This document shows, one piece after another, positions 849 to 24,905 of a stretch of DNA of 25,148 nt. Below the pieces are notes generated by a model. The model was not told the DNA's origin. It worked only from the letters and a program-made list of their open reading frames with translations, and did no database searches. Location: positions 2,233 through 27,380 of the forward strand of contig FLMG01001674.1 of the NCBI GenBank assembly GCA_900088475.1. The letters are read 5' to 3'. Within the stretch, counting starts at the first letter, position 1, and the number at the start of each line of letters is the position of its first letter. Made by a program: the position numbers and the translations under genes. This DNA comes from Hyphochytrium catenoides (Eukaryota > Sar > Hyphochytriomycetes > Hyphochytriales > Hyphochytriaceae).

Positions 849-1188
849 CTAGGTAGACTGTGCGATGCCGATCACTCCGCCCGCAATCCGAGCGCCAGAG
901 TTTCCATTTTGAAGAGAGAGCTCGTGGCCACCCTAGAGAGAGAGAGAAAGGGTGTGAACATAAAGAAAAAGAGACAGAGAGAGTGAGAGAGAGACATAGA
1001 GCAAGGCATCGAGAGTGACAGAGAGAGAGAGAGAGAAAGAGGCAATGAGCGAAAAAGAGAGAGGGGAATCGGAGACAGAGAGAACAAGAGAGAGAGAAAT
1101 TGAAGACCCAGGGTTAGCAGAAGAGAGAGCAAGAAGAATAGAGACATAGAGAGCACCAAAGGCTATAGCAAACAGTCTCCCAAACACA

Positions 1189-1232
<44 letters not shown>

Positions 1233-1382
1233 AAGACCGCATTACCTTGCCAAGATCATCCTCTCTCTCCTTAACTACGAGGGATCTTCCAATGACGGAG
1301 TGTGGGCCAATGAGCTTGACGCCCCTGTCCTCAATCTTCACCACCGCAGTACCATCAGTGTCAGCCTCAATGTTCCCTGGGG

Positions 1383-1423
<41 letters not shown>

Positions 1424-1445
1424 GAAGAAAGAGAGAGAGAGAGAG

Positions 1446-1489
<44 letters not shown>

Positions 1490-1619
1490 TAAAACAAAGA
1501 AGAAAGAGAAGCAGGTCAGGACAATAGAGTAAAGACATGTTGGACAGAAAGAAGTCAGAAAGATAAGAGGAAGATCGGGGAACATAGAAAGTAGCAAGAA
1601 AGACATAAAAAAGGCAGAG

Positions 1620-1668
<49 letters not shown>

Positions 1669-2867
1669 AAAGAGAGTCCAACATCCTTTAGGCATCTCGT
1701 TTTCAAGCAGAAATGCTTGAATGGAGAGACTTCAAAACCAAACCAGTGCAAAAAGAGAGAAAGAGACTCATAAGAGAAAGGAAGGAACCTTGGGAGCACA
1801 GCCTCTCCAGAGAGAGAGAGAGAGAGAAAGACGGAGAGGGAGAGAGAGAGCAAGAGAGAGCACGGACAGACCTAGGTCTCCGGCTCTGCGCTCCTTGTCA
1901 TCGGGGCCTCCATGGTTCTTTAGGTGTGGGTTGAAAATATTGCCTAGGAAAGGAGAGAGAGAGAAAGAGAGTGAGCCCGAGAGAGAGAAGAGAGAAAAAA
2001 ACAAGAGAGACACGAGAGTAAAGGCACGGTATATAGATAAAGACAAAAGAGAGACAGGGAGAGACTGCAAGGGAGAAGTAGTGTAGATCATAAAGTAAGA
2101 GCCACCCTACTTTCAGGATCTACGTGAAAGAACCAGAAGAGAGAGAGAGAAAGAGAAAGAGAAAGAAAAGGAAAAAGAGCGCGCGGACAGAATGGGGGAG
2201 AGAGAGAGAGAGAGAGAGAAGGAGACAGACGGAGAGAGAGAGAAAAGAGGACATATAACAGAATACGAGAGAGAGACCTTGACGGCAGAGAGCGAGAAAG
2301 CAGGAAGGGCATTAAGAAGTACATAGAAAAGAGAGAGAGGGAGAGAAAGAGAGAGAGAGAAAGTGCAAGATAGGTAAAGAAGAAAGAAAGGGAAACAAAG
2401 GACTCACCACAGCTGACAAAGTTCTGGGAGAGATCTCCGAATGTGTGGATGTGGAAGCCGTGCTTGCCCTGGAGAAGAGAGAACAGCCATAAGTGGCCTT
2501 GGAGAGAGAGCCTTTATATTTTCTCTCTCTTTCTCTCTCTTTCCTTCCTGCATTTCCCTCTCTTTCCTGGGAGTAGTCAGCACTTTTTTGTCTCTCTCTC
2601 TTTGTTCACAACTATTTTCTCTCTCTCTCTGCTGAATCTCCCCTATCTTGCTTGCCGTCTTTCACTTTTGAACGCACAGCTCTCTTTCGCACTTCTCTCT
2701 CTCTCTCTCTCTGTGTCTCTCTTCTTTTCTCTCTCTTGAAAATGACATACCGCGGTGAGGCCCTTAATGGTCCCAGAGATGATGGTAGGAGCATCTTCCT
2801 GTGACTGAGTCAGCAGAATCTCTCCGCTGATGCCGTCGCCAGTGAGAACACAGATAGCGCGAGCCAT
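849..2867 (-). CDS. Cu/Zn superoxide dismutase family protein with degenerate metal sites
   Basis: Five exons on the minus strand: 2867-2751, 2468-2408, 1943-1872, 1376-1246 and 932-849. All introns are GT-AG and the phases join cleanly to 154 aa, the same length as human SOD1. Conserved blocks in order: AICVLTGDG (residues 5-13), [21 protein letters not shown] (31-51), [21 protein letters not shown] (69-89), [20 protein letters not shown] (107-126) and [17 protein letters not shown] (136-152). Aligned without gaps from HGFHIH to VIGIAQ, copper ligands His45 and His47 are kept. The bridging His63 equivalent is Ile62, the copper ligand His120 equivalent is Lys119, and the zinc ligand His80 equivalent is Arg79. 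Zinc ligands His70 and Asp82 and the active-site Arg142 remain. Both disulfide cysteines are lost (Phe56, Gly145). There is no signal peptide and no CxxC chaperone domain. The fold is probably kept but normal dismutation is unlikely. The ATG lies in ctataaaATGGCT. Confidence 0.93.
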
Positions 2868-4436: not shown

Positions 4437-4736
4437 GTTTCTTTACCGCTGCCTTGACTCCAATGTCCGTGCTCTCCACCAGCGCGGCGTAAGCCACAGT
4501 GACAGTCCAACCGCGAGGGTCCCGACCCTTTGCACCGAAGGCACCGACCTAGAAAGTCAAAGAGAGAGAGAGAGAGAGAGAGAGACAGAAAGCGAGACAG
4601 AGAGAGAGACAGAGAGAGAGACAGGGTTGGCGACAAGCAAGAGAAACTAAGAAAAAGAAAGAGAGAGGACCTTAAACCTGAGGAAAGATCTACGAACTTA
4701 GAGAGAGAGAGAAGGCAAAAAGACAGAAAGAGAGTG

Positions 4737-4770
<34 letters not shown>

Positions 4771-5640
4771 TGCCTGCACGAGTAGCACCTGCGATGGGTC
4801 TACTGACGTCTCTTCCTGCAGCTCTCTGGCAGCTGCAGCCTCCAAAGGCTCTTCTTCATCCACAAACCCTCCAGGAAGGGCCCAGCATCCCTACCCAAGA
4901 GAGAGGAGAGAGAGAGAGAGAGAGAGAGAGACAGGCGGGCGGCAGAGTAAAAACAGGAAGGAAAAAGGAGAGAGAGAGAGAGAGAGAAGTTAGAACTTGT
5001 AAGTGTGAGATAATGGAATGAGGGGGAGGATGAAGAGAGAGAGAGAGAGAAAGGGGGAGAGAAGGGGGGAGAGAGAGAGAGGAAATGAGAAAGAGACAAA
5101 TAAATCTCTATAAAGTAGCAGTGCACCCTTGAGGGGAGAGGAGAAGGAAGAGCTAACCTTGAACGGATCATTCTTTCTTTGGATAAGGAGAACTTTTGGG
5201 ACGCCTCTCTCTCCTTCTTTGGGCACTTTCTCTTCCTCTCTCTCTCCCTCTCTCTTGGCCACGATAATAGTGTCTACCGTGAGAGAGGGGCGCGGATATC
5301 TTGGAGAAGAAGAGTCAGAAGAGAGAGAGAGAGAAGGACAGGAAGAAGAGGATGTGTAAGAGAGAGGAGAGAGTATGAGGAGAGAAAGGATACCCAGGAA
5401 ACGGAAGAGGACCATTGAAAACCTATACCAAATAAGAAGACAGTGTTAGGAGAGAGAGAGAGAGTGGTGGAGACAAAAGATAAAAGAAAAGCACAGAGAA
5501 AGAGAGAGAAGGAGATGGAAGAGAGAGAAAAGACTGAAAGAGAGAGAGAGGAGACCGTCGTTGGGGAGAGAGATAAGCTGACTCCAAAACGGGGGGAAAG
5601 AGAGAGACAGAAGCATCTCTTACTGATATGTGTGCACCAT
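3925..5640 (-). CDS. Nudix hydrolase, ADP-ribose pyrophosphatase-like
   Basis: Five minus-strand exons: 5640-5624, 5299-5158, 4890-4774, 4548-4447 and 4113-3925. All phases join, giving 188 aa. The N-terminus MVHTYQYPRPSLTVDTIIV is typical of the family. Residues 42-59 read VLLIQRKNDPFKGCWALP, and the Nudix box is at 61-83 (G-x5-E-x7-RELQEETSV), which binds Mg2+ and cuts nucleoside diphosphates linked to another moiety. The box matches the consensus except that the usual Gly after EET is Ser82. Later GAFGAKGRDPRGWTVTVAYAAL (94-115) and DDAKDARWFSID...LAFDH (127-147) match ADP-ribose or related pyrophosphatases. A charged 20-residue insertion (about 19-38, rich in Glu/Lys/Arg) precedes the VLLIQRK strand. 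The intron after residue 92 appears to use a GC donor (CAG|gcaaga). The start is the first Met of the conserved N-terminus; an upstream targeting exon is possible but not seen. The substrate is inferred from motifs only. Confidence 0.9.
4549..4773 (-). other. GC-AG intron in the Nudix gene
   Basis: The exon ends CTCGTGCAG|gcaaga and the next opens ctag|GTCGGT. The join gives LLVQ-VGAFG, the expected L-x-Q-x-x-x-F-G strand. The nearest GT donors upstream (CAG|gtgcta, CTC|gtgcag) delete part of it. Confidence 0.6.
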
Positions 5641-6615: not shown

Positions 6616-7772
6616 ATGCCAATTATAGCCGGTAGCGGTCTTATGGGTGAGAAGAAAAGGTATGATGAAGCTTTTGGGAAGATCATCGCGAAGTGGACGA
6701 GATGGACAGAGCTTGCCCAGCATCTCCTCATTTTAGGAAGCTTTAGCAGAGCTTATCGTGGCCATTCTGCCTTAAGGACGGTGGAACTGTTTGAATCTAA
6801 GTGCGGTAGTTGGCTTGCTGTCCTTGGCTTCAACATTGACGGTTCCTAGGTCGCGATTACACCTGGCACACACTCTGACCCTCCTCGAGCCTTACGGCGG
6901 GGTTTCTGCTGCCGGTAGCGCTTGCTTCTCATCAGCACACGAAGAGGACTAAGTACGGTAGTTGGCTTCCTGTCCTTGGCTTCAAAGTTGACGGCTCCAA
7001 GATTGCGATCACACCTGGCACCCACTCTGACCCTCCTCGAGCCTTACGACGGGGTTCCTGCTGCCGGTAGCGTTTGCTTCTCGTCAGCTCACGAAGAGGA
7101 CCACGTTTCTTTCTTTTCTTGGGACCTCTCCTATGCTACTCAAACGTCATTGGTGGCGTCTGTTCCTTATCTGAAAGGCATAACATCTTCCATATACCGA
7201 CTGTGCCCAAACCGTTCGTGGTATATTGCCTTGAAGATGCTGCGAGATCTCGTGGGAACCACTGTTTACGCCATTGGATCTATTTTCATAGTCTTTCTTT
7301 GCTTGGCTGTCGGTAAGAGGACCTATTCAACCAGCCTGTGTCCGATTTTTTAAGAAACAACTCTCTTTTTGCCATCATCCAGTCCTCATTTATAGTCAAG
7401 TTCTCACGTTTGCTTCTGTGGCTGTGTCTCACTCTTCTCCTATGTATCTTAGGGTGGTGGATTGTCTGGAAGAGCATCCTGTCTCATCTTCCTCTTATTC
7501 AAGAACTCATGGGCGTGACAGAGCAGAGCGCTGGCAGAAAAGAGAAGAGTCGCAAGCCGTCCAGAAGAGTAAGTGCAGACAGATCTATGCTCTGAACGAA
7601 TCAGAGGAAACCGAATCTCTCTAACCGTCTTCATGTTCCTCTCTCTGCCATGCAGTTACCGTCCAATCTCGCATCGGCAGTGGACGACAGTCCGACAGCC
7701 ATTGATGGCAGTGCCTGGGGCATTGGACGAGATCTAGACGGGTCTCGCCCACAGCCGGTGAGAAGGAGATGA
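6616..7772 (+). CDS. Predicted two-helix membrane protein, unknown function
   Basis: Proposed exons: 6616-6805, 7088-7312, 7396-7568 and 7656-7772, giving 234 aa with every junction in frame. Donors are gtagtt, gtaaga and gtaagt; acceptors are tcgtcag, tttatag and catgcag. The N-terminal part (residues 11-63) is basic and helix-like (RYDEAFGKIIAKWTRWTEL). Two adjoining hydrophobic stretches follow, about 118-139 (TVYAIGSIFIVFLCLAV) and 143-163 (LLLWLCLTLLLCILGWWIVW), separated by a short KFSR turn, so a membrane hairpin is likely. The tail is polar and basic (GRKEKSRKPSRR, ending PQPVRRR). I recognise no family. The last two exons are the best supported; the first exon and start are less certain, with a second Met at residue 10. 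Introns 2 and 3 are short (83 and 87 nt) and lack CT microsatellite, unlike the rest of the window. Intron 1 is duplicated. Confidence 0.55.
6799..7102 (+). repeat. 152-bp tandem duplication spanning an intron and its splice sites
   Basis: Units 6799-6950 and 6951-7102 are diverged copies with an exact 152-bp offset. Each holds the last bases of exon 1 (TAAGTGCG or TAAGTACG), a 130-nt intron (gtagttgg to tcag) and the first 14 bases of exon 2 (C-A/T-CACGAAGAGGAC). The intron is not pyrimidine-repetitive. Confidence 0.85.
6936..6957 (+). other. 22-nt candidate poison mini-exon
   Basis: The duplication leaves a second acceptor (catcag at 6935) and a second donor (gtagtt at 6958) flanking 22 nt. 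Included in frame, these read Ala-His-Glu-Glu-Asp and then TAA, and 22 nt also shifts frame. Skipping (6805 joined to 7088) keeps the full frame open. Confidence 0.45.
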
Positions 7773-8676: not shown

Positions 8677-8710
8677 GATTTTCTGAAGCTTCATGAACCA
8701 TCAGAAAATC
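8677..8710. repeat. Perfect 10-bp hairpin in the eIF2B epsilon 5' flank
   Basis: GATTTTCTGA (8677-8686) and TCAGAAAATC (8701-8710) are exact reverse complements around a 14-nt loop, 107 bp before the ATG. It could be a dyad protein-binding site or a 5' UTR stem. Confidence 0.55.
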
Positions 8711-8816
8711 CAATAAATGGAGACTTCCTTCTGCTGAAGATTCTGAAGCCCATCACAATAGAAGAAGAGACAAGGAGAGAGCAACGCCTTTCGTACATCT
8801 CCATCATAAGGCCAAG

Positions 8817-9822
8817 ATGGCGAAAAAGAAGGCCGGAGCTCAAGGCGGAGGGGGTAGCGCCAATGACGTACAGAATGAGCAGCGGCTGCAGGCAGTGGTG
8901 CTGGCTGATTCCTTCACTAGGAATTTCAGACCGATCACGCTGGAGTCTCCTAAGGTTCTCCTGCCCCTGGTCAACGTTCCAATGATAGAGTATACGCTAG
9001 AATTTCTGATCTCCAATGGCGTGGAAGAGGTAAGATCAACGGAGAGAAACGAGAAGAAGGATGCGATAGTCTGCTAGCGGTGCCACTCCCTCAATTGCTC
9101 TGAAAGATTGGCTCTCCGTACACTTTGACTGTTAGAATGACCACTGTTCCCTCCCTATTTCTTTCTCTTTCTTTCTCTTCTTTCCTATTTCTGGATGTTT
9201 TGTCGGATGAGCAGCTCTTCGTGTTCTGTGTGGCTGGGGCAGAGGAGATCCGCGAGTATTTGAAGAACTCTCCCACAAGCTCGCGCGCTGAGATCCATTG
9301 CATCTCTTCTTCCACCTGCCTCACCGCCGGTGATGCACTTAGAGAGCTGGATGCCATGGCCGTCATACGATCAGGTGATTGGTCGGTCGGAGTACTTTCG
9401 AAGATAGAGAGTTAGGGTCGAAGGGAGAGAGAGAGAGAGTATGAGAGAGAGAAAGAGAGACAAGAGATGTGCTTCGCAGAAGAAAGCCCTTTCTTAAGAT
9501 TGCACGACTCTCCTCAACCTTGCTCTGCCTCTTTCGTTCCTGTCTATTTCTTGCTCTCCTATCCCTCTCTCCTCCTTTTCCCTTTCTCTCCCTGTTTCCC
9601 CATCTTTCTCTGTCCCTCTCCATCTCTCTCTCTGATCTGTTCTCTCCCTTCTCCATTGTTTCTCATTTCTTCCTCTTTGCGTTGACCTTTCCTCTCTCTC
9701 TCTCTCTGTCTTTTTACTGGTTACCTTAGGCCTCTCCCCATAGGTCTATAGACTCACATTCTACCTCAACGTATCTCTAACATACACCATGCTCCTCTCT
9801 CCTGCTCTCTTTCTTCTCATAC

Positions 9823-10538: not shown

Positions 10539-11892
10539 TGCCACAGTGACACTGACAGCACTTCCCACTTTCTTATAGATTCTGCTGTATAGCGATAACA
10601 GCTCGGACCCTAATGTTACGATGGACATCTCAGAGCGATATGCCGAACATCCGGAGATACGCTTTCACTACGATCTGCTTGACTGCAATATAGACATCTG
10701 CTCCCCAGAGGTAAGAGAAGAGAAAGAGAGAGAGAAAGAGAGAAAGAGAGAAAGAGAGAACACAGGGACCAGCGGGAAACAGGGTCAACATAAGGAGATA
10801 TTTCCTTGCAGAGAGAGACAGAAGATAACTCTCGGCACTATCATAGGTTTGCTTATCTTCTATCTTTCCCTTTCTCTCCTCCTCCTCCTCTCTCTCTCTC
10901 TCCCTCTCTCCTCGCGCTACAGGTGTTGGTCAAATTCAGTGATAACTTTGACTATCACGACATCCGCAAGCACTTCATCAGCTACGAAGTGGTCAACACA
11001 GAATTAGGAGACAAGGTCTTCTCCTACCTCATACAGAATGGTAAGGACCAGACCGGCCGGCGAGCTTTTCTCTCTCTCTCTTCTCTCTCTCTCTCTCTCT
11101 CTCTTCTTCACTGTCTCTCTCTCTTGCTCTCTCACTCCCTCTATCTCTTTCTGACCGCTTTCTTTTTTTTTTTCCTTCTCACTCTTGTGCCGTCCACTCA
11201 TACTCTCTCTCTCTCGCTCTCTTTCGTTCGTCGTTCGTCGTACTCTTCTCTCGTTCGTTTCGTCGTTCTTTCTATCAAACCTTGTCTGTTTTCTCTCTCT
11301 TTCTGTGTCTCTCTGTTCTCTCGTCCTCTTCTTCTTATCCGCTCCTCCTCTCGTTGATATCCACTCTAACCTTTTCTGTCTCTACCACTCACTTTCTCCC
11401 AAATTTCTCACCACTCTCACTTTCCCTTCGTCTCTCTCCCTCTCGTTCTCTCTTTCTGTTCTTCTCTCTCCCGAAAGAGTACGCGGCCCGAGCACATGAT
11501 CCTCGGACCTACAAATCAATCTGCCAGGACATTATCCACCGCTGGACCTTTCCTCTGGTCCCTGACAGCAATTTCCTAGGACGATCTTCGTACTATTATC
11601 AGAGGAGAGGAATCTATAAAGAAGAGAATGTCTCTCTCTCCCGCTCTTCTCGCCTTCTCGAGGATGTCGTCATTGGCAGCAAGACTGTCATTGGAGCAGA
11701 AACCGTAGTTAGCTCTTCGGTTATAGGGCGAGACTGCAAAATTGGTAAGGGCAAGGGAATAGTACTCTCTCTTTCTCTCTCTCTCTCTCAGAGTCTGTCT
11801 GTCAGTCCGTCTGTCTCTCTCCCGCTCCCTCTTCTTCTCTCTTTTTTTCTCCTTCCTCCACTCCACCCCCACCCCCAGCCCCAACTTTCCTC

Positions 11893-11936
<44 letters not shown>

Positions 11937-13054
11937 TTTTTTCTTTCTTTCTTGTCTCCCTCTGCTGACTGATATTTCCTATTCTGCCTTATAAGACTCT
12001 CTTCGTTTGCTGGAAAGGAAATGTTACTGCTCTTTCTCAGCCTGAGTTATAGTCAGACAGGAAAGGATGTACCCTGCTTTGGCTTGGAATTGTGTCTCTT
12101 CTTCATTGATGTGACCTTTCCCTTCTTTTTCCTCTCTCTCTCTCTCTCCCCCAATATTTGTCTCTCTCACTTGCTCTTGCTTTCTTTTTTTTTCTTGCAG
12201 GCAACAACGTGGTAATAATCAACAGTCTCTTATGGGATGGATGCGTCATTGAGGACAATGCGAGGATTGAGTCTGCCATCCTCTGTTCAGGAGTCAAGGT
12301 AGAGCTCTCTTTTTTTCTCTCTCTCTCTCTCTCTCTCTCTACCTTTTCTCTTTCTTTCTTGTATATGGTTGAGCATTCTTCTATCCCAGTCCCTTGTTCC
12401 TGCCATAGTCCCTTCTTGTCTCTCTCTTCCTTTTCTACCTTTGACTGCCTCCTGCCACCCGCTCTCTCACATTCTTGCTTCTGTCGGTCGGTGTATCTGT
12501 CTGCCTCTCTCTCTCTCTCTCTTTCTCTCTCTTTCTTTCTCTCTCTCTCTCTCGCTCTCTCTCTGTCTCTCTCTGTCTCTCTCTTTTCTCTATCTAGGTC
12601 CTCAAAGGCGCGCGTGTAGGTCGTGGGAGTATTTTAGGATATAATGTTATCATTGGGAGAGACTTCTCTCTTCCTGATTTTTCATTTCTCACAAAATCAA
12701 AAAAGAGAGAAGAGGACGAAGACGATGATTTTGGAGACGATGCAGATGAAGAAGAGGAGGAAGAAGATGGAGAGGGAGGCAATGAAAGAGAGAGAGAGGA
12801 ATGGGATGAAGAAGACGTAGGCCCAGGAGGAGAGGGAAGAATCTGGAAGATAAGACAGCCCGAGGAAGAGGAAGACGACGAAGAGGATGAGCTCGAAGAG
12901 TTGAGAAGAAAGTTTGTCCAGCAAATTTCTTTAGGAGGAAGAGAGGCAGAGAGAGAGAGAGCAGAGGCCTGGAATGAATGGCAGCTCTCAGAAGAAGAAG
13001 ACGAAGAGGAGGAAGAGGTAGACTATTGGCTGCGTATTGACTTTCTCTCTCTCA

Positions 13055-18877: not shown

Positions 18878-18958
18878 CCGAGCGCCTTGAGCACCTCATA
18901 GTTTGACCACAGAGAGAGAGAGAGAGAGTCCTACATCTCACTCTTCCCTACGGAGAAT

Positions 18959-21058
18959 ATGGCACTCATGAAGACCGCTATTTCTCTCTCTCGTCTTGGC
19001 CTCCTTCTTCTCTTTGTCTCTCTCGCAGCAGCGCAGAGAGAGACTGGAAAACTCCCTCTCTCTTCCTCTGCTGGATGGCAAGGGAGAGAGAACGATGCTC
19101 TTTCCCGGAGTGAGAGCCTTCCAGGGACAAAGAGTCCTCAAGGGAAGACGACTCTGGCAGGAGGAAAAGCTTCGACAGTAGAAGAAGAGAGAACGGGAGA
19201 CAGAGAAAGGAAAGAGTGTACTCTCTCTCTTCCTTCCTCTTCCCTAACAGCAAAAGGACTCTCTCAACCTTTTCTTCTCTCTTCCGATTGCCCAAGACAG
19301 AGTGTCTTTCTCTATGGCTACTTCATAGACAAGGACTCCATAGAGATGTTCTATCCCGTTCTCATAAGTGAGGGAGAAGAGATCCCTCGGATCATTCCTC
19401 CCTCTCTCCCTCAAAACGCGGTTGTGGCTTTCTTCCTAGCGACAGACAGAACGACCGCCCTGACAGTGGAAGAGAACAAAGAGACGAAAGAAGGAGAGAG
19501 AGCGCTTTGTGCCTCTCAGACAAAAGAAGGGCTTATGGCATGCAACGCTCTCTCTTTCCAGGAAAAACTAGCTGCCTCTAGGGTGTGGAGAAAGTCTCTC
19601 TCTCCTTCTCCTTCGTCTTCTTCTCTTTCTTCTTGCCCCGACTTGATGGACTTTGAATCCGTCTCTCTCTCGTCCATGAAGAAACTGAGCAGTGAAGAAG
19701 AGAAAGCAAAGAGAAGACAGTCTTTCATGAAAGCCGTTATCGCGTGCAAGTCCTTCTTCCCTCATGCAAACTCTTCTTCTCCCTTGTCAGAAGAAGGAAA
19801 AGAGGGAGATCAGGGGAGAGAGATTCAGGGAACAGCAGGAGAGGAAGACAGTCTCTTGGCTGCGGATACCGCGAGCCAGAGTGGCGAGAATGCCCTTGTA
19901 GCAGGAGGACAGGTGCGTGGAAGAGTTGGAAAAGGAATATCTCCTTCACCTCCTCTAGGAGACGGAATGTCAGGAGAAGGCGTGGGAGACTCTCTCTCTC
20001 TTCCTCCCTCTCCCGCGGAGGCAGGATCTGCATCCGGCGCAATGGGAGGAGCAGGAGGAGGAGACATGATGGGCGGCGGCGGCGGAGGAGAAGCAGGAGG
20101 CTTTGACGCCATGGGAGGCGGAGGAGGCGGAGGAGACATGATGGGCGGCGGCGGCGGAGGAGGAGAAGCAGGAGGCTTTGACGCCATGGGAGATGGAGGA
20201 GGCGGAGGAGGCATGATGGGCGGCGGCGGTGGAGGAGGAGATGCACTCAGTGCGCTGGTGACCGCAGGGACCAACGCCTTACAGACCTTGATTGGCAGTC
20301 AAGGAGGAGGAGGAGGAGGAGGCATGATGGGCGGAGGAGGAGGAGGAGGAAGCGGAGACTTTGACGCTATGATGGGAGAAGGAGGAGACATGATGGGCGG
20401 CGGCGGAGGAGGAAGCGGAGGCTTTGACGCTATGATGGGAGAAGGAGGAGAAGGAGACATGATGGGCGGCGGCGGAGGAGGAGAAGGAGGCTTTGATGCT
20501 ATGGGAGGAGGAGGAAGAGGAGGAAGCGGAGCGGGGAAGGATCTCTCTTCTCTCTCTTCTAAAGAAAATAATGGCTCAGGAGGACAAGGAGGAAGACAAT
20601 CTTCTTCTTCTTCCCCTGACGCTCTCTCTCAATTGACTGGAGGAGGAGGAAAAAAACCGAAACAGCCGGCCCAGGCCGAAGGACCCAATACTAAGACCAC
20701 GGCGGCCGCGGTAGACCCGAAAACGGCGGTAACGGCTAAACCCACATCTAAGACAACGTTAGCCGCCACCGGTGGGACCAAAACTACGGCCACAACCCCG
20801 AAACCGGCCGGCCGAGGAACTGCCGCAACGAAGAAAGCCAGCTCGTTGTACCCCTCCAGCGGCAGCAGCAGTTCTACTCAGAAAATATCAGGCGCTAGTA
20901 AGAACAAGGCAAGCGGCGGAGGAGGAAAGAGTGTCCAAGGTGTCCAGCAGCCAGTGCAGAAGAAGAAGAAGACAGAGGCGCAGGCGCAACAAGGAGCCGC
21001 AGGAGGAAAGAAGAGAGAGAGAGAGAGAAGACACTTGCGAAGAGACAGAAGAAAATGA
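18959..21058 (+). CDS. Secreted glycine-rich repeat protein, intronless
   Basis: A single uninterrupted 699-codon frame from ATG at 18959. Residues 1-25 form a signal peptide (basic start, LGLLLLFVSLAAA, likely cut near Gln26). Residues 80-270 form a unique domain with six cysteines (87, 111, 184, 195, 226, 263), including VFLYGYFIDKDSIEMFYPVL. Residues 360-525 are glycine-rich, built of about six MMG(6-7) modules, five of them followed by a (G/D)FDAM motif. In the middle is a non-repetitive helix-like insert (DALSALVTAGTNALQTLIGS, 428-447). Residues 575-625 are Thr/Ala/Lys/Pro-rich and could be O-glycosylated or bind polyanions. The tail is strongly basic (KKKK at 668, then KKRERERRHLRRDRRK). 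No membrane anchor follows. A wall, mucilage or biomineral matrix role is possible but inferred from composition only. No known family is recognised. Confidence 0.8.
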   Translation: MALMKTAISLSRLGLLLLFVSLAAAQRETGKLPLSSSAGWQGRENDALSRSESLPGTKSPQGKTTLAGGKASTVEEERTGDRERKECTLSLPSSSLTAKGLSQPFLLSSDCPRQSVFLYGYFIDKDSIEMFYPVLISEGEEIPRIIPPSLPQNAVVAFFLATDRTTALTVEENKETKEGERALCASQTKEGLMACNALSFQEKLAASRVWRKSLSPSPSSSSLSSCPDLMDFESVSLSSMKKLSSEEEKAKRRQSFMKAVIACKSFFPHANSSSPLSEEGKEGDQGREIQGTAGEEDSLLAADTASQSGENALVAGGQVRGRVGKGISPSPPLGDGMSGEGVGDSLSLPPSPAEAGSASGAMGGAGGGDMMGGGGGGEAGGFDAMGGGGGGGDMMGGGGGGGEAGGFDAMGDGGGGGGMMGGGGGGGDALSALVTAGTNALQTLIGSQGGGGGGGMMGGGGGGGSGDFDAMMGEGGDMMGGGGGGSGGFDAMMGEGGEGDMMGGGGGGEGGFDAMGGGGRGGSGAGKDLSSLSSKENNGSGGQGGRQSSSSSPDALSQLTGGGGKKPKQPAQAEGPNTKTTAAAVDPKTAVTAKPTSKTTLAATGGTKTTATTPKPAGRGTAATKKASSLYPSSGSSSSTQKISGASKNKASGGGGKSVQGVQQPVQKKKKTEAQAQQGAAGGKKRERERRHLRRDRRK

Positions 21059-22108: not shown

Positions 22109-22648
22109 NNNNNNNNNNNNNNNNNNNNNNNNNNNNNNNNNNNNNNNNNNNNNNNNNNNNNNNNNNNNNNNNNNNNNNNNNNNNNNNNNNNNNNNNNNNN
22201 NNNNNNNNNNNNNNNNNNNNNNNNNNNNNNNNNNNNNNNNNNNNNNNNNNNNNNNNNNNNNNNNNNNNNNNNNNNNNNNNNNNNNNNNNNNNNNNNNNNN
22301 NNNNNNNNNNNNNNNNNNNNNNNNNNNNNNNNNNNNNNNNNNNNNNNNNNNNNNNNNNNNNNNNNNNNNNNNNNNNNNNNNNNNNNNNNNNNNNNNNNNN
22401 NNNNNNNNNNNNNNNNNNNNNNNNNNNNNNNNNNNNNNNNNNNNNNNNNNNNNNNNNNNNNNNNNNNNNNNNNNNNNNNNNNNNNNNNNNNNNNNNNNNN
22501 NNNNNNNNNNNNNNNNNNNNNNNNNNNNNNNNNNNNNNNNNNNNNNNNNNNNNNNNNNNNNNNNNNNNNNNNNNNNNNNNNNNNNNNNNNNNNNNNNNNN
22601 NNNNNNNNNNNNNNNNNNNNNNNNNNNNNNNNNNNNNNNNNNNNNNNN
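22109..22648. other. Assembly gap (540 N)
   Basis: A run of 540 N flanked on both sides by (CT)n. The assembler probably failed inside a long microsatellite, so the true size may differ. Confidence 0.98.
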
Positions 22649-22810: not shown

Positions 22811-22955
22811 ATAATCAAGGTTGAAGGATACATTTCTCATACAAGACCTGGGTAACCTAGAGAGGAAGGATATTAAGGGTGGGTGGGTAAAGGTTTCTTT
22901 TTCTCCCTTGAAAAGAGCATTTTTTTCTTGTCAACGTTACTCGGCGCAACAGTCA

Positions 22956-23000
<45 letters not shown>

Positions 23001-23148
23001 TTCTCCGCCCCTACAACCCAGCATCAATCACAGTCAGACGCCACCCGCCCAAAATCTTCACAATCCAAATCTCCGTCTGCAGACAACGTTCCCTAGGACA
23101 CATCTCTTCTCTCCGCCTAATATTAACACAGGGAAAACGCACCGCGCC
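22811..23148 (+). other. Upstream region and 5' UTR of the GME gene
   Basis: Non-repetitive to 22955, a (CT)n tract at 22959-22992, then probable 5' UTR. The start context is gcgccATGG. No TATA-like box stands out. The CAAGTAC cluster seen upstream of eIF2B epsilon is absent. Confidence 0.5.
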
Positions 23149-24348
23149 ATGGCTCCTGTCGATAACAAGCCCCACCCTCCACCTTCTCCTACAAAGAAGC
23201 GCACGGCCAGCACGGATAGCGCATCTTCTCCTTCTTCCAAGGCAAAGAAGACCAAGGCTGGGAGCAAGGGGAAGGTCCTCGTGGCTGGTGGAGGAGGATT
23301 CATCGGCTCTCATCTGGCCAAGCGGCTGAAGGAAGACGGCTACTATGTCATCGTCGCGGACTGGGCGGAGAATCCTTACTTTGAAGAGTCAGAATTCTGC
23401 CATGAGTTCCATAATGTGGACCTGCGCTCACAGGAGAACTGCGACAAGGTGACCAAAGGCGTAGATGAGGTCTATGACCTTGCTGCCGGTAAGGAGAGAG
23501 TGGATGCATTGAACTTCTTTGTGACGTTTCTTCTTTCTCTCTCTCTCTCTGTCTCTCCCTCTCTCTTTCTCTGTCTCTGGGAGCTCTCATTGGGCCTCGT
23601 GCCATCTGTCTCTCCCTTGTTCAACGTGGTTTTGGTGTATGCTTGTGCCTCCTGCCTGTGAAAAGAAGTTCTCTTTCTTTTCTCCTCGCTCTCTTTCTCG
23701 TTTGGCCTGTCTTTTCCTAGTCCTCTTCTACTTATCTTCACATTCTCTTCTCTCTATTCAACTCAAAGGATCGATATCTTCTTCTCTCTTACCCGTTCTT
23801 TCTATAGAGTTCGAGCTTCAACTGACTCCATTTGACTTCGTTCTCTCTCTCTCTCTCACTTTCACTCCCTCTTTCCCTCTCTCTTTCCTTCTCTCTTCTC
23901 TCTTTCTCTCTCTCTCTCTTGTGGCTTGCAGATATGGGCGGCATGGGCTTCATTCTCTCCAACCACTCCGTCATTCTGCAGAACAACCTTCGGATTGGAC
24001 TCTGTCTCCTCCAATCTGCAGCAAAATACGGCGTTAAGCGTTTCTTCTTCGCCTCTTCGGCCTGCGTTTACCCTGATTATAAGCAGGAAGAGGCCATCAT
24101 CCCAGCTTTGAAGGAGGAAGACGTCTGGCCCTCAGATCTTAGGAGTAACGCGTAAGTGTCTTATCTATCGAGGGAGAGAAGAGAGACGAAGAGAGAGAGA
24201 GAGAGAGAGAGAAGTGAATTGAATTGACAGGAAGTATCTTGCTTCTCTGTCTCTTAGCCTTTTTTGGATCGCTACCACGGAAGAATACTGTTGCACCTTG
24301 GTCTCCTTTCTTCATACACAAACTGACACTCCGGAACTCTCTCTCCTA

Positions 24349-24379
<31 letters not shown>

Positions 24380-24905
24380 CCTATCTCTCTTCTTTCTCTC
24401 TTCTCTCTCCCCCAGCTATGGCTTTGAGAAGCTTGTCATGGAGGAAGCTTGCCGCTGGCACGCCCACGATCACGCGAAGATGGAGGTGCGCATCGGGCGC
24501 TTCCATAACATATACGGACCTCAGGGCACCTGGAAGGGAGGGAGAGAGAAGGCTCCCGCAGCCTTCTGCCGCAAGGTCATCACCAATGACAAGGAGTTTC
24601 CTATGTGGGGAGACGGAGAGCAAACGCGGTCTTTCTGCCTGGTGAGTCTTCTCTCTCTTTCTCTCTCTTCTCTCCCTATCTCTCCCTTCCAGTGGTGGAG
24701 TTGGGGCTTGCTAGACTTCTCTCTTTCGATTCAGGCCTGTCATTCGTTCTTCGTAGTTGCCTGCACGATGATAACTCTCTCTCTTCCCTCTCTCTCTCTC
24801 TCTCTCTCTCTGTGGTGTGCAGGTGGATGACTGTGTGGAGGCTGTGCTTCGGCTTATGAGAAGTGACTGCAGTGATCCGATCAACATTGGCTCCGACCGC
24901 CTCAT
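23149..24905 (+). CDS. GME: GDP-mannose 3,5-epimerase (5' part, truncated by window end)
   Basis: Exons 23149-23488, 23932-24151, 24416-24641 and 24823-24905 join in frame to 289 residues. The plant enzyme has about 377, so roughly 85-90 are missing beyond the window. It converts GDP-D-mannose to GDP-L-galactose (and GDP-L-gulose) in the cytosol, feeding vitamin C and wall polysaccharide synthesis. It is an extended short-chain dehydrogenase: Rossmann loop GGGGFIGSH (47-55), FCHEFHNVDLR (83-93), DMGGMGFILSNHSVI (114-128), SSACVYPD with catalytic Cys158, the YGFEK Tyr188/Lys192 pair, RIGRFHNIYGPQGTWKGGREK with Lys232 (equivalent to Arabidopsis Lys217), MWGDGEQTRSF and INIGSD. Residues 1-40 are a Pro/Ser/Lys-rich extension with a KAKKTK patch, unlike the enzyme core and possibly nuclear-targeting or disordered. 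All catalytic residues present in this part are intact. Confidence 0.96.

What the first reader, a model, noticed from the sequence alone, without database searches (positions are those of the whole stretch)
849..2867. A SOD1-length Cu/Zn SOD homologue that has lost half its metal ligands
The hand-spliced 154-aa protein aligns to SOD1 without gaps across the metal-site region. The bridging His is Ile62, copper ligand His120 is Lys119, zinc ligand His80 is Arg79, and both disulfide cysteines are gone. The hydrophobic core, the GDLG and DDLG turns and the active-site Arg remain. Exons, splice sites and frame are all intact, so this is not an obvious pseudogene. The pattern also differs from Cu-only SODs, which keep the copper histidines. 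It may be a maintained pseudoenzyme (regulator, metal buffer or SOD partner).
Basis: partly seen in the sequence, partly recalled or inferred. Interest (0 to 1): 0.75.

Follow-up and report, generated by a model that had tools for sequence, protein, structure and literature searches.

The report
Ancient metal-free superoxide dismutase look-alike
This gene encodes a protein shaped like the common antioxidant enzyme SOD1 but lacking the metal-holding residues that do the chemistry, and relatives in diatoms, brown algae and water moulds share the loss, so it looks like an old protein kept for some other, still unknown job.

Summary
Five GT-AG exons at 2867-849 (minus strand) encode an intact 154-aa Sod_Cu protein (Pfam 147.9 bits). 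His63 is Ile62, His80 Arg79, His120 Lys119; Cys57 and Cys146 are Phe56 and Gly145. No exon in the window would restore them.

Of 111 related rows examined (110 database proteins and the window; five odd rows set aside), all lack His63 and His80, 89 lack His120, none shows Cys57 and one shows Cys146. The 37 database members with a readable organism label are all stramenopiles. Change is concentrated at metal and disulfide sites (63% against 12% at other canonical-invariant sites). Two diatoms carry both forms. In the window's genome no other Sod_Cu locus was found; Fe/Mn-SOD matches lie on four contigs.

Best reading: an old, metal-free, non-dismutase SOD1-fold pseudoenzyme, probably a binding or scaffold protein with an unknown partner. 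Missing histidines in most diatom "Cu-ZnSODs" are already in print (PMC4460010). A single origin is likely, not shown.

The parts
2751..2867 (-). exon 1, ATG, residues 1-39
   Evidence: matches SOD proteins and profile
2408..2468 (-). exon 2, residues 40 to 60 (60 split); retained His45, His47 (SOD1 46, 48); Phe56 in place of Cys57
1872..1943 (-). exon 3; Ile62 (codon 1938-1936) for bridging His63, retained His70 (His71), Arg79 (1887-1885) for His80, retained Asp82 (Asp83)
1246..1376 (-). exon 4; Lys119 (1272-1270) for His120, retained Asp123 (Asp124)
   Evidence: matched
849..932 (-). exon 5; retained Arg142 (Arg143), Gly145 for Cys146, TAG stop
2469..2750 (-). intron 1, GT-AG
1944..2407 (-). 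intron 2, GT-AG
   Evidence: repeats counted over the four introns together
1377..1871 (-). intron 3, GT-AG, with GA arrays 1383-1486 and 1616-1676
933..1245 (-). intron 4, GT-AG

Best explanation
The gene encodes what I call the stramenopile pseudo-SOD: an old relative of cytosolic Cu/Zn SOD that keeps the SOD1 barrel but has given up the binuclear metal site and the Cys57-Cys146 disulfide. Shown: gene structure, ligand losses, a family with the same losses, one Sod_Cu locus found in this genome. Inferred: it cannot hold copper and zinc as SOD1 does and is no dismutase; dismutation is left to Fe/Mn-SODs. Inferred and less sure (about even odds): it works as a small cytosolic dimer that binds a partner protein, a scaffold or regulator that keeps a non-dismutase role ancestral SOD1 already had.
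For: All 111 rows, the window included, lack His63 and His80; all keep His71, Asp124, Asp125 and Arg115. Loss is targeted: in the window 5 of 9 metal/disulfide sites are changed against 4 of 46 other canonical-invariant sites (Fisher p 0.0034), and over 111 rows 63% against 12% (the seven ligand columns are constant in the canonical set by construction). Against four canonical rows near them in the tree, the only residues carried by 60% or more of the family and by none of the four are L18, K42, I63, M80 and R128; the window itself has K42 and I63 of these. With ligand and cysteine columns left out, a 119-row tree separates canonical from altered rows with two changes (shuffled mean 30.5). Predicted fold of P0002 (same seven ligand letters as the window) has pLDDT 94.5 and TM 0.96 to human SOD1 structures, cysteine-free apo 2gbu among them; the diatom P0034, five ligands changed, 91.5. 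Members come from MMETSP transcriptomes, P0001, P0003, P0005 and P0007 for example, so relatives are transcribed. Two diatoms hold both kinds: P0047/P0052, same MMETSP1175 label and taxid, 56% identical, and Stephanopyxis turris (P0034; a five-histidine copy reported in PMC4460010). Own genome: only this locus with three SOD proteins at E up to 10 and Pfam; Fe/Mn-SOD C-domain on four contigs.
Against: No activity, metal content, partner or phenotype is known; dN/dS could not be computed. Single origin is weakly supported: altered rows without P0058 are one side of a branch at 58/83; all altered rows are one side in 24% of 200 bootstrap trees, and the bootstrap had not settled. The Ile/Val63-type rows alone are not one side of a branch in the best tree (held together: 14.5 log units worse, p 0.18). 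Family members lie on average further from outside SODs than the intact relatives (2.02 against 1.48-1.57), so constraint may be somewhat relaxed. His46, His48, His71 and Asp83 remain in the window protein, so weak metal binding is possible. The dimer and the cytosolic site are assumed from the kept C-terminal strand and the lack of an N-terminal extension, not tested. AlphaFold would be expected to return the SOD fold for any close homologue.
Confidence: 0.72

Rival explanations
1. Anion- or ligand-binding protein: the emptied active-site channel, with Lys119 and Arg142 near its base, now binds a small anion or metabolite and the protein senses or carries it.
For: Lys at position 120 is the commonest state (49 of 111) and Arg143 is kept in 91 of 111.
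Against: Position 120 is also Tyr 22, His 22, Phe 10, Thr 5, Cys 3 of 111, and Arg143 is Ile or Val in 17 of 111, so the pocket is not constant over the family. No coordinates were available to me to measure a cavity.
Confidence: 0.15
2. CCS decoy or SOD1 regulator, like the leporipoxvirus SOD homologues that bind the copper chaperone and block SOD1 activation.
For: A described pseudodismutase mode (PMC10211241, table passage citing Teoh 2003); two diatoms carry both canonical and altered forms.
Against: In the window's genome no other Sod_Cu locus was found, so neither SOD1 nor the SOD-like domain of a CCS (completeness unknown, and the tool scores only its best candidates).
Confidence: 0.05
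3. Residual or re-invented metal site: a metal-binding or buffering protein using His46, His48, His71, Asp83 and, in relatives, Met80 or Cys.
For: His46, His48, His71 and Asp83 remain in the window; Met80 is frequent (83 of 111); three rows have Cys120 and two of these also Cys48.
Against: His71 is constant but no set of two or more old ligands is: His46 kept in 78, His48 in 71, Asp83 in 82 of 111; in the window position 80 is Arg.
Confidence: 0.06
4. Decaying pseudogene or assembly artefact.
For: Only one copy found, in a repeat-rich region; no transcript of this very gene was available.
Against: Open frame, four good splice-site pairs, repeat-poor exons, multi-base codon changes, and the same losses in a whole family.
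Confidence: 0.02

Closest known systems
Cytosolic Cu/Zn superoxide dismutase (SOD1, Pfam PF00080)
   Same: Length, fold, turns, Arg143, Asp124, C-terminal GVIGIAQ strand; 53% identical to human SOD1
   Different: His63, His80, His120 and both disulfide cysteines replaced
Diatom 'Cu-ZnSOD' transcripts of Groussman et al. 2015 (PMC4460010; abstract, passages, sections 9 and 14 read)
   Same: [quoted passage not shown] diatom members of the present family come from the same transcriptome project
   Different: It counts them as Cu-ZnSOD and treats diatoms; in what I read it does not name an inactive family shared by other stramenopiles
Leporipoxvirus SOD homologues (decoys that bind CCS; seen only as a table row and a reference in PMC10211241)
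   Same: SOD homologue described as catalytically inert
   Different: Viral; here no SOD1 or CCS domain was found in the genome. Their sequences were not fetched or compared
Cu-only SODs (e.g. Candida SOD5; recalled, not compared here)
   Same: Loss of zinc ligands
   Different: Cu-only SODs keep the copper histidines (recalled); here His63 and His120 are gone

Membership tests
Sod_Cu fold family (PF00080) | Score above Pfam's curated cut-off over the whole domain | tested here: met
   147.9 bits against 28.9, profile 2-133 of 133
Active Cu/Zn SOD | Cu ligands His46, 48, 63, 120 | tested here: not met
   H, H, I, K
Active Cu/Zn SOD | Zn ligands His63, 71, 80, Asp83 | tested here: not met
   I, H, R, D
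Active Cu/Zn SOD | Cys57-Cys146 disulfide | tested here: not met
   Phe and Gly
Active Cu/Zn SOD | Active-site Arg143 | tested here: met
   Arg142
Active Cu/Zn SOD | Dismutase activity | not testable with these tools
   needs protein
Cu-only SOD | All four Cu histidines kept (recalled definition) | tested here: not met
   two of four lost
CCS-decoy pseudo-SOD | A CCS/SOD1 system in the same cell to act on | tested here: inconclusive
   no second Sod_Cu locus found in own genome, but assembly completeness is unknown
CCS-decoy pseudo-SOD | Binding to CCS | not testable with these tools
   needs protein
Stramenopile pseudo-SOD (family proposed here) | No His at 63 (Ile or Val in 108 of 111) nor at 80, no Cys57/Cys146 pair, otherwise SOD1-like | tested here: met
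Stramenopile pseudo-SOD (family proposed here) | Single common origin | tested here: inconclusive
   58/83 support without P0058; 24% of 200 bootstrap trees with all altered rows; not rejected by AU test

The most novel reading that the evidence does not exclude
One duplication of cytosolic SOD1 early in stramenopile evolution gave a metal-free pseudoenzyme that has been under strong constraint since before diatoms, brown algae and oomycetes parted, often outlived the true Cu/Zn SOD, and does an essential non-dismutase job; many 'Cu/Zn SOD' annotations in these lineages are then wrong.
Probability: 0.5. Interest if true: 0.75.

Novelty: new variant of a known kind. Interest (0 to 1): 0.6.

Why it matters
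'Cu/Zn SOD' genes in algae are used to infer metal use and oxidative-stress capacity (PMC4460010 does so for diatoms). If the altered ones are metal-free pseudoenzymes, such inferences need correcting. It would also be a natural, long-lived SOD1 fold that needs neither metals nor disulfide, of use to those who study SOD1 stability and its non-enzymatic roles.

Tried and rejected
Alternative exons restoring the histidines: a six-frame profile search of the window gave the five known exons (E 1.4e-7 or better) and three further matches at E 1.3 to 9.9, taken as chance; motif searches gave no other plausible exon. Second Sod_Cu gene: none in own genome with Pfam PF00080 or three proteins. NiSOD search of own genome was empty, but its control rang nowhere, so it says nothing. 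A viral relative: 148 pattern matches, none confirmed. Bacterial and archaeal genomes: 287 pattern matches, 3 confirmed loci; only L015 was read, and it has His at 63, 80 and 120. Rfam on the window: no match. Organism: COX1 (8000 candidates scored, 120 listed) gave among named hits Heterosigma 84%, Discosporangium 84%, Nannochloropsis 82%, Saprolegnia 81%, and an unnamed 97% hit; RuBisCO large subunit not found; so a stramenopile that I could not place further. Literature: nine searches; searches matched 144 and 562 papers of which 20 and 10 were listed. Among the listings only PMC4460010 bears on the point by title, abstract or what I read of it; other listed papers, except passages of PMC10211241, were not opened. 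dN/dS: no orthologue DNA was reachable.

Rows dropped: 8 of 169 SOD proteins (260 aa or longer) were left out of the alignments; five odd rows (P0058, P0064, P0087, P0103, P0168) were set aside from the 111, because their ligand losses differ in kind: all five keep His80, and all but P0103 (Asn) keep His63. The rows are best hits (120 listed of 4110, and 120 of 6154), so proportions are not a census. In one search, 4 rows have a gap at Cys57 and 1 at Cys146. Trees used 119 and then 66 rows thinned by identity.

Full report
What is there. On the minus strand, exons 2867-2751, 2468-2408, 1943-1872, 1376-1246 and 932-849 join through four GT-AG introns into a 465-base frame of 154 residues and a stop. 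The product is a full-length Sod_Cu protein (147.9 bits, cut-off 28.9) that aligns to mammalian SOD1 from residue 3 to 152 and is 53% identical to human SOD1. No exon in the window could put the histidines back. The exons are nearly free of the GA/CT repeats that are common in the introns (17 of 465 against 460 of 1554 bases).

The best hits in a 5.8-billion-sequence collection are mostly 58-71% identical and mostly carry the same losses. Two searches gave 169 SOD proteins; the 161 shorter than 260 aa were aligned with the window and human SOD1, 163 rows. Of these, 47 have all seven ligands (human included). Five odd rows were set aside, leaving 111 rows with the window among them. In these, His63 and His80 are absent from 111 of 111, His120 from 89, His48 from 40, His46 from 33, Asp83 from 29; Cys57 is in none and Cys146 in one; His71 and Asp124 are in all. 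For 37 of the 110 database members the listings give an organism name or taxid that I could read; all 37 are stramenopiles: raphidophyte, bolidophyte, xanthophyte, brown algae, pelagophytes, eustigmatophyte, diatoms, oomycetes and others. Five taxids were looked up; the other placements are from general knowledge of the names. The remaining 73 have no readable organism.

Constraint. At 55 positions that are at least 95% constant in canonical rows, the window differs at 5 of 9 metal/disulfide sites and 4 of 46 others (p 0.0034); across the 111 rows the figures are 63% and 12%. That is not random decay, though the ligand columns are constant in the canonical set by definition. Set beside four canonical rows near the family in the tree (P0020, P0039, P0040, P0052), the residues that 60% or more of the family carry and none of the four has are only L18, K42, I63, M80 and R128; the window shares K42 and I63. 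Mean tree distance to 24 outside canonical rows is 1.69 for the window, 1.48-1.57 for those four and 2.02 on average for the 33 family rows in that tree: somewhat faster, not free, evolution.

Origin. With ligand and cysteine columns removed, a quick tree of 119 rows needs two changes between canonical and altered, the stray being P0058, which among the ligands lost only His120, and both cysteines. In a careful tree of 66 rows the altered rows other than P0058 lie on one side of a branch with weak support, 58/83; all altered rows together do so in 24% of 200 bootstrap trees (bootstrap not settled) and are not rejected (p 0.45), nor are the Ile/Val63-type rows alone (p 0.18, though 14.5 log units worse than the free tree), while a control union of diatom and animal rows is rejected (p 0.0001). 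So one origin is likely but not shown, and P0058 and perhaps the P0064 group (His63 and His80 kept in P0064 and P0087, His46, Asp83 and His120 changed) suggest that related SODs have lost ligands more than once. Two diatoms carry both kinds: Pseudictyota dubia (P0047 altered, P0052 canonical, same MMETSP1175 label and taxid, 56% identical) and Stephanopyxis turris (P0034 here; a copy with five canonical histidines reported in PMC4460010). In those species the altered form is thus a paralogue beside an intact enzyme.

The cell it sits in. The genome (42.5 Mb, 1105 contigs) gave no other Sod_Cu locus to Pfam or to three proteins at E up to 10, and Fe/Mn-SOD C-domain matches on four contigs. Superoxide can therefore be handled without it, and a SOD1 or CCS partner appears to be missing; completeness of the assembly is unknown and the tool scores only its best candidates. 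COX1 points to a stramenopile without a close named relative; no RuBisCO large subunit was found.

How it probably works. AlphaFold models of P0002 (same seven ligand letters as the window) and of the diatom P0034 keep the SOD barrel (pLDDT 94.5 and 91.5), the first at TM 0.96 to human SOD1 structures, with a cysteine-free apo form (2gbu) and one without Cu ligands (2xjl) among the listed matches. I infer that the fold does not need the metals, that dismutation is very unlikely, and that the protein acts by binding something. A scaffold or regulator that keeps a non-dismutase role of SOD1 is my first choice, a ligand or anion carrier using the emptied channel the second; a CCS decoy is unlikely here.

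What is known. Groussman et al. 2015 (PMC4460010; abstract, passages and sections 9 and 14 read) say that in a majority of diatom Cu-ZnSOD transcripts only His71 and Asp83 of the ligands are fully conserved, yet count them as Cu-ZnSOD. Pseudodismutases of leporipoxviruses are cited in PMC10211241 (three passages seen). My searches (listed under Tried and rejected) showed no paper naming a stramenopile-wide inactive family; the library holds open-access papers only, and two listings were capped.

Noticed in passing
window 1-25148: High density of GA/CT simple repeats: 3894 of 25148 bases lie in runs of four or more units.
   Followed up: partly
window 8697-9074 and 11045-11965, + strand: Pieces of a probable eIF2B epsilon gene: LbH_EIF2B 55.2 bits (cut-off 54) in the second; nucleotidyl transferase 19.7 bits, below its cut-off, in the first.
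   Followed up: partly
window 22912-24827, + strand: Exons of an NAD-dependent epimerase (PF01370 in three frames; GDP_Man_Dehyd also matches the first).
   Followed up: partly
window 4693-4890, - strand: NUDIX domain piece (41.9 bits).
   Followed up: no
window 18902-21055, + strand: 718-codon open frame with Gly/Met-rich repeats, a hydrophobic stretch near its first Met (by eye) and no Pfam match.
   Followed up: no
window 6797-7101: 152-base unit present twice, 90% matches.
   Followed up: no
window 22109-22648: A run of N between CT repeats.
   Followed up: no
L015 3001-3462: Nocardia jinanensis contig encodes a eukaryote-like SOD with Ala at the His46 position and the other ligands present by eye.
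   Followed up: no
P0159, P0160, P0162: Members with Cys at position 120, two of them also at 48, beside Met80: a possible thiolate copper site. P0159 is Stauroneis constricta.
   Followed up: no
P0058; P0064, P0087, P0103, P0168: Other Sod_Cu proteins with different partial ligand losses, perhaps separate events.
   Followed up: partly
L014 31-1305: Open frame upstream of cox1 that reads as cox2 (by eye) with a long, polar C-terminal extension.
   Followed up: no
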